A DNA stretch of 54,516 nucleotides from NCBI GenBank assembly GCA_018303945.1, contig JAGVXD010000005.1:1-54516 (forward strand), given 5' to 3'. Position numbers and translations under genes: made by a program. Every line of letters starts with the position of its first letter. Position 1 is the stretch's first letter. Under the pieces are notes generated by a model. That model made no database searches and was not told the DNA's origin. It saw only the letters and a list, made by a program, of their open reading frames with translations. This DNA comes from Candidatus Pacearchaeota archaeon (GTDB lineage: Archaea; Nanobdellota; Nanobdellia; Pacearchaeales; GW2011-AR1). Below are positions 28,948 through 33,194 of the stretch, one piece after another.

Positions 28948-28991
28948 GTTAAATACGGATGATTTCAGGCGTTTTAAATACTTATCTTTTT

Positions 28992-29018
28992 AGTGAGCTG
29001 TAAAGTTAGCGACACCTA
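28992..29018. repeat. left terminal inverted repeat (27 bp)
   Basis: Perfect inverted match to 32594-32620; see the mobile element entry. Confidence 0.9.
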
Positions 29019-29056
29019 ATAGTCAAGTTTTTAAGTTTTATATGTTAAGGTTTAAC

Positions 29057-29470
29057 ATGGATTTAAAGAAAATACCTAGAGGGGAAATAAATGGGGTTCC
29101 TATGATTACCAAATTCAAGGGTGTAATGATAGAACTGTTTAAAGGTTATCCAGGATTTCAATACTTTGGAATTTTTGAGTCTTATTTTGGAAAAGAACTC
29201 GGAGAAGAGATAGTTAGAATATTGCATCAAGATAAGTTGCTTGATATATTTCCAAAAAAAGAAAATGAGCCTACTCGATATCGTCTTACTGGTGAGGGAG
29301 TAAACATGGCGATTTCCATGATTAACTTAGATTATAGTGAAAAGATGCATAAATTCACTATTTGGATAATTATGCTAACCATTATTACTGCCATAGTGGG
29401 AATAATTCAAATATATCCATTTTTATTGAAATGCTTAGAATGGTTAATGTCGTATGGAATTAGAACTTAA
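29057..29470 (+). CDS. winged-helix-like protein with C-terminal membrane helices (137 aa)
   Basis: The N-terminal 80 residues look like a small wHTH domain (helices IELFKGYPG.. and GEEIVRILHQDKLL, then the YRLTGEGVNMAI wing typical of MarR/PadR-like folds). One or two hydrophobic helices follow (IWIIMLTIITAIVGIIQIYPF). First gene inside the left terminal repeat. An alternative ATG at 29042 adds five residues. Function unknown; a membrane-tethered regulator is possible. Confidence 0.55.
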   Translation: MDLKKIPRGEINGVPMITKFKGVMIELFKGYPGFQYFGIFESYFGKELGEEIVRILHQDKLLDIFPKKENEPTRYRLTGEGVNMAISMINLDYSEKMHKFTIWIIMLTIITAIVGIIQIYPFLLKCLEWLMSYGIRT

Positions 29471-29511
29471 AATTTCGCTAAAGGTTCTTTAGTACTGATA
29501 GAATTAAATAC

Positions 29512-29729
29512 TTCATGTGCCTGATTATTTCATGAAAATAAGAGAAGTCCTTGATAAAAAAGTTGGAAATACTGAATATACTAGATATATAACAACATTG
29601 CCTAAAGATGTAGTCAAAGAGTCAAAACTTCTCGGAAAAGAGTTAAAAGCAAGAGTCGAAAAAGGAAAGATAATCCTAGAAGAAGTATAGCTCTTTCATG
29701 TACCGAAAGGTTTATATACTTCATGTACC
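29512..29729. promoter_or_regulatory. three copies of a TTCATGTRCC element upstream of the AbrB-like and transposase genes
   Basis: Copies at 29512-29521 (TTCATGTGCC), 29695-29704 and 29720-29729 (both TTCATGTACC). Each lies around a TATA-like element (AATTAAATAC, TTTATATAC). A plausible shared operator for the AbrB-like protein, controlling itself and the transposase. Confidence 0.5.
29532..29690 (+). CDS. AbrB-like small DNA-binding protein (52 aa)
   Basis: Short protein with an AbrB/SpoVT-type pattern: TRYITTLPKDVVKESKLLGK followed by LKARVEKGKIILEEV. Located in the transposon directly before the transposase, between two identical promoter-like elements. Likely regulates transposition or the restriction-modification genes. 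Ends with TAG. Confidence 0.6.
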   Translation: MKIREVLDKKVGNTEYTRYITTLPKDVVKESKLLGKELKARVEKGKIILEEV

Positions 29730-29740
29730 TGAATATAAGT

Positions 29741-30601
29741 ATGATAAAGTGTAAACATTGCTCAAGTTTAAACTTTTCTAAAAAAGGTTTTAGAAAAACA
29801 GAATATCGAGGGAAAATCCAAAAATATTATTGTAAAGATTGTCACAAATTATTTACAAATGATGACGGTTTTTACAGAATGAGAAATAAGCAAGAAATAA
29901 TTACAATGTCTATTGATATGTATATTTCTAATTTATCAAGCAGAAAAATGAGAAATCAATTAAGCAGACATTTAAACACAAAAATAAGCCATATGAGTAT
30001 TCTTGATTGGGTAAGGAGATATACCTTAAAAGTCAGCAAGTTTGTTGATAAATTAGGTTATAATATGGGAAATAGTTTCTATGCTGATGAAACTTTAATT
30101 GATTGTGAAGGAAGAGATGATAGATTTTGGTGTTGTATTGATTGGGATACAAGATTGATTACTGGAGTTCATTACAGTTTAGCAGGTAATCCAATAGAAG
30201 CACAAAAATTCTTGTTTAAATCAATACAGAAAGGAAAACCTAAATTTATTCAGACAGATGGCGGAGTTTTCTACCCTAAAGCATTTAGAAAACTCTTCTA
30301 TTCTAATAAAATTGGTGGATTAACAGTAGAGCATAAGATACAGAATGCAAGTGTTACAAAGATACATAATTATCGAATAGAAACCGTATTTATGAAACTT
30401 AAAGATAGAGTAGATGACTTTAGAGGACTAAAAGCGTTATGGTCTGCCCCTATTCTAATGAATGCTTTGATTATTCAACATAACTTCATAGAAGCCCATA
30501 CAACATTAGAAGATGTGCCTTGTGAAAGAGCAGGGGCAAATCTCAATCTTGGAGATAATCGGTGGTTAGACTTAATTAAATTGAGTAGTCTAAATAATTA
30601 A
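29741..30601 (+). CDS. DDE transposase with N-terminal zinc finger (IS6/IS240-like)
   Basis: 286 aa. N-terminal four-Cys zinc finger (CKHC...CKDC, residues about 3-34), then a helical DNA-binding segment, then a DDE catalytic core. The catalytic residues are in YADETLID (D), FIQTDGGVFYPKA (D) and YRIETVFMKLKDRV (E), with RGLKA following. Pattern fits archaeal IS6/ISPfu-like enzymes. ATG 29741 is chosen over 29723 because TTTATATA lies about 25 bp upstream. Likely mobilises the 27-bp repeat-bounded element. Followed after 4 bp by the methyltransferase gene. Confidence 0.85.
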   Translation: MIKCKHCSSLNFSKKGFRKTEYRGKIQKYYCKDCHKLFTNDDGFYRMRNKQEIITMSIDMYISNLSSRKMRNQLSRHLNTKISHMSILDWVRRYTLKVSKFVDKLGYNMGNSFYADETLIDCEGRDDRFWCCIDWDTRLITGVHYSLAGNPIEAQKFLFKSIQKGKPKFIQTDGGVFYPKAFRKLFYSNKIGGLTVEHKIQNASVTKIHNYRIETVFMKLKDRVDDFRGLKALWSAPILMNALIIQHNFIEAHTTLEDVPCERAGANLNLGDNRWLDLIKLSSLNN

Positions 30602-30605
30602 AAAG

Positions 30606-31850
30606 ATGATAAAACATTATCTTATTATGGAAAAAGAGCAAGAAGGATTTATTAATTGGGATTTTAGAGAAGCAGATACTAAACAGTTTACTCATGGAAT
30701 ACATACCTACCCTGCTATGATGATACCCCAAATAGCTAGAAGGTTAATCTATCTTTATGGTAAGGATGCTAAAACGTTATTAGATCCCTTTATGGGTTCT
30801 GGCACTTCTCTAGTTGAAGCATCTTTAACAAATCAAATAAAAGAAGCTTATGGTTTTGATTTAAACCCCTTAGCATTCTTAATATCAAAAGTCAAAACAA
30901 CTCCCTTGAATATTGAAAATTTAGACAAAGAATTATCAAATATAATAAAATCAAAAAATTATAAAGAACTTCCAAAATTCAAGAATATAGAATTTTGGTT
31001 TAAACCCAAAGTTATTGAACAACTGGCAATAATAAAGACAGCAATAAATAAAATAAATGATAAAGGTATTAAAGACTTCTTTTTAGTTTGTTTTTCTGAA
31101 ACAGTTAGAAACGTATCTAACACTAGAAATGGAGAGTTTAAACTTTATAGAATGTCTGATAAAGATTTGATAAAGCATAATCCATATGTTATTTCTGAAT
31201 TTGAAAGAATCGCTTTAAAGAATATGAAGGGAATGAAAGAATATGTAAAGGCTAGACAAAAGACGAAAACAATACCACAAAATTATAGCTCTATGGAAGA
31301 ATTACCTTTAAGTCCAGAGAGCATAGATTTAATCGTAACATCTCCGCCATATGGAGATAGTAAAACAACAGTTGCTTATGGTCAATTTTCAAGACTAGCT
31401 TTACAATGGTTAGATTATGAAGATGTAGCAAGTTTAGATAATAGACTCTTAGGCGGTAAAGCCAGCAAAGAATTGGAAATTAAAATTAATTCCTCAACTT
31501 TAAAAGAGATTATTAAAAGAATAGCTGAAATAGATGGTAAAAGAGCAAAAGAGGTTTTAAGCTTCTATGAAGATTTTGATAAGTGCGTTATTCAATTAGA
31601 TAGAGTAATGACTAAAAATGGTTTTGTTTGTTTTGTTGTTGGCAATAGAACAGTTAAAGGTATTAACATACCTACGGATAAGATAATGACTGAAATGTTT
31701 AAAGCAAGAGGTAATTATAAATATATGACTACTCATCTAAGAGCAATACCTAATAAAAGAATGCCTAGTTTAAATTCTCCTTCAAACAAAGCAGGAGAAA
31801 AAGTAACTACCATGTGTAACGAGTTTATTTTTGTTCTTCAAAAAATCTAA
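30606..31850 (+). CDS. type II DNA methyltransferase (SPPY, probably N4-cytosine)
   Basis: Modification enzyme of the transposon-borne R-M system. Motif I LLDPFMGSGTSLVEA (58-72), catalytic motif IV VTSPPYGDS (244-252) followed by a FSRLALQWLDYEDV segment. SPPY with motif I first suggests an N4-cytosine (or N6-adenine) methylase, fitting the MvaI/BcnI partner, whose cognate enzymes are N4C methylases acting in CCNGG-type sites. The start may be ATG 30606 or 30627 (MEKEQEGF). Convergent with and overlapping the nuclease gene by 4 bp. Confidence 0.88.
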   Translation: MIKHYLIMEKEQEGFINWDFREADTKQFTHGIHTYPAMMIPQIARRLIYLYGKDAKTLLDPFMGSGTSLVEASLTNQIKEAYGFDLNPLAFLISKVKTTPLNIENLDKELSNIIKSKNYKELPKFKNIEFWFKPKVIEQLAIIKTAINKINDKGIKDFFLVCFSETVRNVSNTRNGEFKLYRMSDKDLIKHNPYVISEFERIALKNMKGMKEYVKARQKTKTIPQNYSSMEELPLSPESIDLIVTSPPYGDSKTTVAYGQFSRLALQWLDYEDVASLDNRLLGGKASKELEIKINSSTLKEIIKRIAEIDGKRAKEVLSFYEDFDKCVIQLDRVMTKNGFVCFVVGNRTVKGINIPTDKIMTEMFKARGNYKYMTTHLRAIPNKRMPSLNSPSNKAGEKVTTMCNEFIFVLQKI

Positions 31851-32566
31851 ATGAGATTTATTTCCTTTTGATATAAATCAGATAAATTCTTTCTTGCTGT
31901 TCTAAAACCAGAACCATGGTCTCTAATAGCGGTATCTGATTTAAGATGGAGCCTAAATTCCCAAACTATTCTACCATCCTTTATCATTTTCTTAAACTCT
32001 TGTGGCTTAAATCCAGAAAGATAAAGTGCTTCTTTATAATGAAAATATTCATTATCTCCTTTTTTCTTAACATCTGCCAAGACCAATAATATATTTTCTC
32101 CAAGTTTTGCTCTTATAATACTCATCAATTTTCCATAGTCAAAAAAACAAACCTCTCCTAATTTGTGATGGATTATTGCTATTCTTTTTCTAAATACGCC
32201 TCTTATTTCTAGCTTGTAACCTTTGGGATTATATCCTCTTGTAGACAAAATTATCTTTAATGCTTGTCTACCTTTTTTATCTATATATCCCGTCTTTCTT
32301 ATCACTTCAAACTTATTCATTTTCCAAGTCGGCTCTTTTGTAGAAAGAGTTATGGGAGTTTCTGCCTCAATTCTCTGAGCTTTTAATTCAATTAGTGTTT
32401 TTCCAATAGTGAAGTCATGCTCTGGAAGATTATTTTCACTTATATTCATTTCATCTTCTAAGGTTTTACCTATTCCAGTATTATTTGACCTGTGGCTTTT
32501 GATAAATCCTTTTTCTGATATTTCTTTAAGCTTTTGCTTTAATCCTTCTAAACTTGCAAAATCCAT
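31847..32566 (-). CDS. MvaI/BcnI-family type II restriction endonuclease
   Basis: 239 aa. Matches the MvaI/BcnI family signature: SNNTGIGKTLEDEM (28-40, the GxGxTLE motif), then HDFTIGKTLIELKAQR (50-65) with Asp51, Glu60 and Lys62 as the likely D...ExK site. The rest of the fold is consistent (KIILSTRGYNPKGYKLEI). Related enzymes act as monomers on CC(W/S)GG; specificity here is not readable. Ends 28 bp inside the right terminal repeat. Confidence 0.85.
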   Translation of the reverse strand: MDFASLEGLKQKLKEISEKGFIKSHRSNNTGIGKTLEDEMNISENNLPEHDFTIGKTLIELKAQRIEAETPITLSTKEPTWKMNKFEVIRKTGYIDKKGRQALKIILSTRGYNPKGYKLEIRGVFRKRIAIIHHKLGEVCFFDYGKLMSIIRAKLGENILLVLADVKKKGDNEYFHYKEALYLSGFKPQEFKKMIKDGRIVWEFRLHLKSDTAIRDHGSGFRTARKNLSDLYQKEINLI

Positions 32567-32593
32567 ACATTTTAGAGAGAATAATCACTTAAA

Positions 32594-32620
32594 TAGGTGT
32601 CGCTAACTTTACAGCTCACT
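32594..32620. repeat. right terminal inverted repeat (27 bp)
   Basis: Perfect inverted match to 28992-29018. Confidence 0.9.
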
Positions 32621-32674
32621 TTTTAGAGAGAAAAGATTTTTATATGTGTCTGGACTCAAATATAAGAGGTGAAA

Positions 32675-32971
32675 ATGATAAACTGGTATATTATTGGGGC
32701 TTTGGTGGTGTTGGCTTTAATACTGCTAAAATTTAAGGAGATTAGGCATCAATTAGGCATATTCATAGGGCTTGGAATATTGGTATTCTTAGTAATTTCT
32801 TTTGGGACTCTCTCGGCTAGCAATGATTTAGATTTAACCAGTTTTGATGGAGTAGTGTCAGCAAGCAAACTATATATTGTTTGGCTGGGCAATTTGTTTA
32901 CTAATGTAAAGGGCATCTCTACATACGTTGTTAATCAGCCGTGGGGCATAAACGAGAGCATAGGCAAGTAG
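32675..32971 (+). CDS. small membrane protein (98 aa)
   Basis: Two transmembrane helices (about residues 5-20 and 30-50) and an extracytoplasmic C-terminal segment ending VWLGNLFTNVKGISTYVV. ATG 32675 is chosen; AGAGGTG at 32665-32671 is a good Shine-Dalgarno. The C-terminal 35 residues resemble those of the next gene, so the two are probably paralogous. Function unknown. Confidence 0.65.
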   Translation: MINWYIIGALVVLALILLKFKEIRHQLGIFIGLGILVFLVISFGTLSASNDLDLTSFDGVVSASKLYIVWLGNLFTNVKGISTYVVNQPWGINESIGK

Positions 32972-32975
32972 AAAG

Positions 32976-33194
32976 ATGATTCGCATAGGCACTACTATAT
33001 TAATTTTCTTATTAATCGGGGCTTTTTTAATAATAAGCAATAATAATCTGCATATCTCTCAATCGGAAGGGAGAGTGATTTTTGCCAGAAGTTATTACAA
33101 TTGGATTTTTGGTTTGTTTGGAAATGTAAAGAGCCTGACAGGCTACTTTGTTTCAACTGAATGGCTCCCAGATTTTAATTCCAGTAAGCCATAA
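32976..33194 (+). CDS. small membrane protein, paralogue of preceding gene (72 aa)
   Basis: One transmembrane helix (TTILIFLLIGAFLIIS) then WIFGLFGNVKSLTGYFVS, matching the WLGNLFTNVKGISTYVV segment of its neighbour. Starts 4 bp after the previous stop, forming a two-gene operon. No family known to me. Confidence 0.65.
   Translation: MIRIGTTILIFLLIGAFLIISNNNLHISQSEGRVIFARSYYNWIFGLFGNVKSLTGYFVSTEWLPDFNSSKP

What the first reader, a model, noticed from the sequence alone, without database searches (positions are those of the whole stretch)
28992..32620. Transposon that carries a complete type II restriction-modification system
Perfect 27-bp terminal inverted repeats enclose a DDE transposase together with an SPPY methyltransferase and an MvaI/BcnI-like nuclease, plus an AbrB-like and a membrane wHTH protein. 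R-M genes are often near mobile elements, but a single-transposase unit with R-M as internal cargo is uncommon. The exact repeats suggest a recent insertion, next to tRNA-Gln.
Basis: partly seen in the sequence, partly recalled or inferred. Interest (0 to 1): 0.7.

Follow-up and report, generated by a model that had tools for sequence, protein, structure and literature searches.

The report
Archaeal transposons carrying restriction-modification systems
A small jumping gene in a tiny archaeon carries a complete DNA-cutting defence system between its own ends, and its relatives in the same lineages do so again and again with many different systems, which shows one way such defences could move between genomes.

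Summary
A 3.6-kb element at 28994-32618 has perfect 25-bp terminal inverted repeats, an exact 8-bp target duplication (CTTTTTAG), an IS6/IS240-like DDE transposase, an AbrB-like gene, an SPPY methyltransferase and an MvaI/BcnI-type nuclease.

It is not a one-off. In DPANN archaea I delineated 52 elements of three transposase families with direct target duplications; 26 belong to this family, and all 26 carry extra genes. Twenty-one of 52 carry a DNA methyltransferase; 12 of 52 have both R-M halves supported by profile or homology, including a complete Type III system in the window's own genome. MvaI/BcnI and HinP1I modules each occur in two transposase families whose transposases are ~35% identical. 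MTases of the three MvaI/BcnI elements form one clade, but their nucleases come from different clades (AU p=0.0002).

Transposition and restriction are inferred, not shown. Single-transposase elements with passengers, and transposon-borne R-M, are known kinds; this archaeal family, its cargo slot and its R-M recurrence look new.

The parts
28986..28993 (.). left target-site duplication CTTTTTAG
   Evidence: exact 8-bp match to 32619-32626; relatives also have exact 8-bp duplications
28994..29018 (+). left terminal inverted repeat, 25 bp
   Evidence: 100% complementary to 32594-32618
29042..29470 (+). 142-aa protein with hydrophobic C-terminus (possible wHTH); left-side cargo, function unknown
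   Evidence: ORF; no Pfam, NCBIfam or PADLOC family above cut-off
29492..29528 (+). candidate promoter/operator repeat before the AbrB-like gene (pairs with 29700-29736)
   Evidence: 81% identical direct repeat over 37 nt; CATGTNCCTGA core upstream of AbrB and transposase genes also in L091, L107, L121
29535..29690 (+). AbrB/MazE-like small DNA-binding protein, 51 aa
   Evidence: Pfam MazE_antitoxin 0.0029, below cut-off; similar small ORFs in most relatives, by eye
29700..29736 (+). second copy of the candidate operator, before the transposase gene
29723..30601 (+). DDE transposase, 292 aa (start may be 29741), zinc ribbon C10 C13 C37 C40, D122 D179 E220
   Evidence: Pfam DDE_Tnp_IS240, NCBIfam IS6 below cut-off, invariant residues in 19 aligned rows, RNase-H-type matches of a medium-confidence model
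30606..31850 (+). SPPY DNA methyltransferase, 414 aa, 4 bp after the transposase stop
   Evidence: Pfam N6_N4_Mtase, PADLOC MTase_II 1.1e-141, TSPPY in the ORF
31847..32566 (-). MvaI/BcnI-type restriction endonuclease, 239 aa, convergent, overlaps the MTase stop by 4 nt
   Evidence: Pfam MvaI_BcnI 1.1e-38; R.MvaI 1.1e-10 in the PDB, D..ExK aligned
32594..32618 (-). right terminal inverted repeat, 25 bp
32619..32626 (.). right target-site duplication CTTTTTAG

Best explanation
This is a cargo-carrying transposon of a DPANN-archaeal family. Shown by sequence: left TIR, AbrB-like gene and zinc-ribbon DDE transposase form a conserved backbone of about 1.1 kb in its relatives; cargo sits between the transposase stop codon and a short right TIR (the window also carries a 142-aa gene on the left); insertion left an 8-bp duplication. 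Here the cargo is a type II R-M system: a methyltransferase 4 bp behind the transposase and a convergent MvaI/BcnI-type nuclease. Inferred: the transposase moves everything between the TIRs as one unit; the methyltransferase is co-expressed with the transposase, so that a new host is methylated before the nuclease, which has its own start next to the right TIR, builds up; the AbrB-like protein represses its own and the transposase promoter; and the R-M pair gains mobility while it holds the transposon in the lineage, because cells that lose it are cut, and restricts incoming DNA. Over evolution whole R-M modules moved between transposon families, and nucleases were exchanged under one methyltransferase lineage.
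For: Perfect TIR plus exact 8-bp TSD. Ends and TSD in 24 of 42 related loci vs 1 of 2100 shuffles. Backbone alignments stop near the transposase stop when cargo differs; the next ORF begins a median of -4 bp from that stop, within 15 bp in 14 of 22 elements. Window and G152: transposase 35% identical, MTase 76%, with the jump at the transposase stop. HinP1I R-M 85% identical in both families. 19 of 78 transposase hits have a listed PF01555 MTase within 3 kb; 0.64 expected with an assumed 140 Mb. Purifying selection: HinP1I M and R pN/pS 0.16 each; MvaI-type MTase 0.21; transposase 0.19. Catalytic residues conserved.
Against: No transposition, methylation or cutting was observed. No empty site: the flanking gene was not found in a syntenic place in relatives, and the G008 flank test gave homology only up to the right edge. 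Only one complete copy of this element stands in its genome, so activity today is not shown. The NCBIfam IS6 score (77.8) is under its cut-off of 125. In family 1 only 3 of 26 elements carry R-M, so this family is a general cargo carrier, not an R-M specialist. The operator repeat was found in only 4 of 26 elements. MvaI-type nucleases of window and G008 show pN/pS 0.65, which fits exchange but also relaxed or diversifying selection. Outside the order I saw by eye no transposase with a listed PF01555 MTase within 3 kb, though that list stops at E about 1e-40.
Confidence: 0.87

Rival explanations
1. A chromosomal R-M locus next to which an IS inserted; repeats and linkage are coincidence.
For: R-M genes often lie near mobile elements; chromosomal relatives of this R-M exist without a transposase.
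Against: The repeats enclose both genes and are flanked by an exact 8-bp duplication; the same arrangement recurs in G008 and, with a transposase 35% identical, in G152.
Confidence: 0.03
2. A transposon with R-M as a neutral passenger: the cargo slot takes any gene, and R-M is frequent only because R-M genes move a lot. No alliance between transposon and R-M.
For: Cargo is diverse: LD-carboxypeptidase, TrmB, SET, trypsin-like, Fic, AlbA_2 and others; 3 of 26 family-1 elements carry R-M.
Against: MTase in 12 of 20 transposase-sampled family-2 elements, of several unrelated types; MTase near transposase about 30 times expectation; purifying selection on both genes in the HinP1I pair.
Confidence: 0.35
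3. A decayed element, no longer mobile, with R-M kept for host defence only.
For: Single complete copy in the genome; a second, partial copy at the end of contig C2.
Against: Intact ORFs, perfect TIRs, intact TSD and conserved DDE residues.
Confidence: 0.2
4. A tRNA-targeted integrative element.
For: tRNA-Gln 38 bases away.
Against: No integrase, no tRNA copy at the ends; relatives lie at unrelated sites.
Confidence: 0.01

Closest known systems
IS6 family, archaeal clades (PMC7986276, PMC6807381; passages read)
   Same: DDE_Tnp_IS240 domain, 8-bp target duplications, single transposase
   Different: IS6 members are mostly 700-890 bp with short IRs; the review names a single member (ISDsp3) with a passenger gene; NCBIfam IS6 cut-off not reached; TIR starts TGAGCTGT; the second paper doubts that archaeal members belong to IS6 at all
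Transporter IS (tIS): IS with passenger genes (named in PMC7986276)
   Same: one transposase, TIRs, passenger genes
   Different: here every delineated member of the family carries passengers (26 of 26), and R-M recurs
Tn7-like transposons with defence cargo (PMC8649781; passages read)
   Same: 96% carry cargo; R-M is reported as the commonest defence cargo; gene sharing between hosts
   Different: multi-gene TnsABC-type machinery, reported absent from archaea; unrelated transposase architecture
R-M on mobile elements: PluTI element and the Rhizobium R-M transposon-like structure (titles seen only in a reference list); IS-linked movement of PaeR7I (PMC3031569; abstract and passages)
   Same: R-M in or linked to transposon-like structures; post-segregational killing proposed to stabilise the unit
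   Different: bacterial; PaeR7I moved by chromosomal IS1/IS5, not as cargo of a dedicated element family
MvaI/BcnI restriction-modification
   Same: nuclease matches Pfam MvaI_BcnI and R.MvaI; a 22%-identical viral relative of the MTase is annotated 'similar to PspGI methylase'
   Different: located inside a transposon; nuclease of a different clade from those of its nearest MTase relatives

Membership tests
IS6 family | 8-bp target duplication | tested here: met
   24 of 42 relatives
IS6 family | transposase above the curated IS6 cut-off | tested here: not met
   NCBIfam transpos_IS6 77.8 bits vs 125; Pfam DDE_Tnp_IS240 is met
IS6 family | length about 700-890 bp and no passenger genes (typical members) | tested here: not met
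   3.6 kb with 4 further genes; relatives 1.67-4.85 kb
IS6 family | replicative cointegrate transposition | not testable with these tools
   -
Transporter IS (single-transposase element with passengers) | TIRs and target duplication enclosing a transposase plus passenger genes | tested here: met
Type II R-M, MvaI/BcnI kind | nuclease of the MvaI/BcnI family with D..ExK site | tested here: met
Type II R-M, MvaI/BcnI kind | cognate DNA methyltransferase next to it | tested here: met
   adjacent MTase_II
Type II R-M, MvaI/BcnI kind | methylation and cutting at the same site (CCWGG/CCSGG-like, recalled) | not testable with these tools
   needs methylome or enzyme assay
Tn7-like | TnsB/TnsC machinery | tested here: not met
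   no such genes among the ORFs or their families

The most novel reading that the evidence does not exclude
DPANN archaea have their own system of gene-mobilising transposons: at least three related DDE families (8-bp, 9-bp and 9-bp target duplications) in which a compact backbone of TIR and transposase, in family 1 usually with an AbrB-like gene, carries an exchangeable cargo slot. Family 2, and possibly the SWIM-finger family 3, are chiefly vehicles for restriction-modification of Type II and Type III. R-M modules hop between families, and nucleases are exchanged under one methyltransferase lineage, so that the transposon works as an assembling and spreading device for restriction defence in cells with genomes of about 1 Mb.
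Probability: 0.5. Interest if true: 0.75.

Novelty: new variant of a known kind. Interest (0 to 1): 0.62.

Why it matters
R-M systems are scattered as if they moved constantly, yet dedicated vehicles with clean ends are seldom delineated. Here the ends, duplications, cargo and backbones can all be read, so the old question of how R-M systems travel, and whether they stabilise the element that carries them, can be tested directly. For DPANN archaea, small-genome cells usually treated as gene-poor, it names a concrete route of gene exchange that carries defence systems.

Tried and rejected
Simple neighbourhood of R-M and IS: rejected by target duplications outside both genes.

6-bp duplication: my first reading; replaced by 8 bp when relatives were compared. 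Family-2 elements were missed with an 8-bp search (1 of 38, itself not of the family-2 TIR type) and found with 9 bp (20 of 40).

Empty sites: flank protein of the window in 36 relatives: 3 hits counting the window itself, no usable synteny; joined flanks of the family-1 elements and the 20 family-2 elements against all fetched loci: no empty site, only matches of two elements to their own loci and one partial 79% match; G008 flanks against 9 genus relatives: homology begins at the right edge, the left neighbour differs. L100/L101 looked like a second insertion but share their flanks.

Viral contigs: 0 relatives of the transposase. Plasmids: 2 records at 24-25%, annotated IS6. Phages: 7 records with an MTase relative at 22-26%.

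R-M association outside the order: none seen by eye among listed rows (rows truncated), so I claim it for this order only.

Transposase model: mean pLDDT 64.5, so its PDB matches only support an RNase-H-type DDE fold. NCBIfam and Pfam gave nothing above cut-off for the 142-aa protein.

Rows dropped: only hits down to 2e-22 were used (78 rows; second halves of a few split genes left out), and only the 150 listed MTase rows (my hand sum of its 'matches' column is 298). The 140 Mb used for the expectation is an estimate.

Full report
What is there. The window belongs to an 803.7-kb, 22-contig genome. Its GTDB family also holds G008, whose contig has the same length (167,747) as the record 'Candidatus Pacearchaeota archaeon UBA73', so the host is a Pacearchaeota-like DPANN archaeon (inference). 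The 25-bp TIRs at 28994-29018 and 32594-32618 are perfect and the 8-bp duplication CTTTTTAG is exact. Inside lie, left to right: a 142-aa unknown, a 51-aa AbrB-like protein, a 292-aa transposase, a 414-aa methyltransferase and, convergent, a 239-aa nuclease. The transposase has an N-terminal zinc ribbon and D122, D179 and E220 are invariant in 19 aligned rows; a medium-confidence model matches DDE transposases and integrases.

Relatives with the same ends. A search of named genomes with a transposase profile gave 42 loci, from records titled Pacearchaeota, Woesearchaeota, Aenigmatarchaeota, Nanohalarchaeota, Nanoarchaeota or simply 'archaeon'; the viral collection gave none. Twenty-four of 42 have both ends and an exact 8-bp duplication, against 1 of 2100 shuffled loci; of the 18 others, 7 have under 600 bases on one side. 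The complete chromosome of archaeon GW2011_AR20 holds three copies with different duplications and different cargo. With the window and one further element (L015) that makes 26 family-1 elements of 1.67-4.85 kb; each holds at least one ORF of 120 aa or more besides transposase and AbrB-like gene. Several of these loci are the same elements as those fetched from G-handles (for example L090 = L041, L106 = L049).

A cargo slot. Elements with different cargo are 85-89% identical in DNA over about the first 1,130-1,190 bases (TIR, AbrB-like gene, transposase) in the closest pairs and unrelated beyond, except for the right TIR. The next ORF begins a median of -4 bp from the transposase stop (14 of 22 within 15 bp) in either orientation, and the last ORF usually ends 20-100 bp from the element's end. 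Cargo found by Pfam includes LD-carboxypeptidase, TrmB, a SAM methyltransferase, AlbA_2, ArsR, SET, a trypsin-like protease and Fic. In the window's own genome a second, partial copy carries a TPR-like membrane protein instead (named by eye).

R-M recurs, in three transposase families. Family 2 (transposases 46-87% identical to that of G152 in the delineated loci, about 35% to the window's) has TIRs like TACATTGTTAACTTAAAGGG and 9-bp duplications: 20 of 40 loci passed my threshold, plus L164 just below it and L176. Of these 22, 14 carry a DNA methyltransferase; leaving out L042 and L176, which I reached through R-M searches, 12 of 20. Nuclease partners are supported by profile or homology in 7: MvaI/BcnI (L042), MjaI (L147), HinP1I (L161) and unnamed REase_II families (L139, L146, L154, L176). 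Seven others have an MTase with a neighbour that no library recognises as a nuclease (L141, L143, L148, L155, L158, L160; L143 and L155 partly by homology to L141) or only weakly (L150). Family 1 has R-M in 3 of 26: window, G008 and G065 (HinP1I type). Family 3 (409-412 aa with a SWIM-type cysteine motif, by eye) has TIRs like GAGAGTGTTAGGAATTAGGG and 9-bp duplications. In the window's own genome (C12, locus L171:4919-11740, duplication aacacacaa) it carries a complete Type III system, Mod 2.9e-165 and Res 1.8e-138; G065 carries another. Family-3 loci were fetched partly because an MTase was near, so they give no rate. In all, 21 of 52 delineated elements hold an MTase (3 family 1, 14 family 2, 4 family 3) and 12 of 52 hold both halves with support (3, 7, 2).

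Is this more than background? In 180 genomes of the order, 298 PF01555 matches are counted (my sum over). Of 78 transposase hits, 19 have one of the 150 listed PF01555 matches within 3 kb; about 0.64 would be expected if 140 Mb is taken for the 180 genomes.

Modules move between backbones. Window and G152: transposases 35% identical, methyltransferases 76%, and identity jumps at the transposase stop codon. HinP1I systems of G065 (family 1) and G095 (family 2) are 85% identical in both genes, on opposite sides of the transposase; an AlbA_2 gene is 82% identical across families. pN/pS is 0.155 (M) and 0.156 (R) for the HinP1I pair and 0.21 for the MvaI-type MTase. One family-2 R-M element is 97% identical over 2.9 kb in two genomes of different genera, but one copy fills a whole short contig, so misbinning is not excluded.

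Nuclease exchange. The methyltransferases of window, G008 and G152 form one clade (100/100). Their nucleases do not: G152's joins a chromosomal nuclease of another family (L081, 100/99), G008's joins L074 (97/97), and the window's falls in the group with L073, L080 and the G008 pair (100/99); 0 of 200 bootstrap trees unite the three, and forcing them together is rejected (AU p = 0.0002; window with G008 alone p = 0.03). Chromosomal relatives have wHTH, MTase, sometimes an ASCH-like gene (by eye), then a convergent nuclease, with no transposase hit in these short loci.

How it works, with status. Shown: a unit with ends, duplication, intact genes and conserved catalytic residues. Inferred: mobilisation by its own transposase; MTase made with the transposase (4-bp spacing, 3 bp in G008 and G152); nuclease from its own start by the right TIR; AbrB-like control through the repeated promoter motif, which is seen in only 4 of 26 elements; stabilisation by post-segregational killing, a concept demonstrated for other R-M systems (PMC3031569, passages).

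Against what is known. Passenger-bearing IS (tIS) and R-M on transposons exist; the IS6 review names one passenger-bearing member; Tn7-like elements carry much defence cargo but were reported absent from archaea. My paper searches (open PMC papers only) showed no description of R-M-carrying transposons in DPANN archaea. Hence 'new variant of a known kind'.

Noticed in passing
locus L171:4919-11740 (own genome, contig C12): A second R-M-carrying transposon of another family in the same genome: Type III Mod and Res plus a 145-aa gene, TIR 16/20, 9-bp duplication aacacacaa.
   Followed up: yes
31847-32566 with L041 and L042: Nucleases in the three MvaI/BcnI transposons belong to different clades although their methyltransferases form one clade: partner exchange, or target change under one MTase.
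   Followed up: partly
29492-29528 and 29700-29736: 81% identical direct repeats with a TATA-like stretch and CATGTNCCTGA before the AbrB-like and transposase genes; also in L091, L107 and L121.
   Followed up: partly
L148 and L158 (family-2 elements): An 87%-identical 370-aa protein of unknown family accompanies two different methyltransferases; it may be a third R-M component.
   Followed up: no
L154 and L151: R-M transposon 97% identical over 2.9 kb in two genomes of different genera; one copy fills a short contig, so transfer or misbinning.
   Followed up: no
L124:4232-6215: Family-1 element whose transposase is broken and whose cargo looks like a HEPN/MNT toxin-antitoxin pair (PADLOC PDC-M05A/B).
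   Followed up: no
32669-33194: Two small hydrophobic ORFs in tandem just outside the element, sharing a 40-nt 70% repeat; probable paralogues.
   Followed up: no
G000:C5:113-130: A lone TIR-like end at a contig end, possibly a third copy cut by the assembly.
   Followed up: partly
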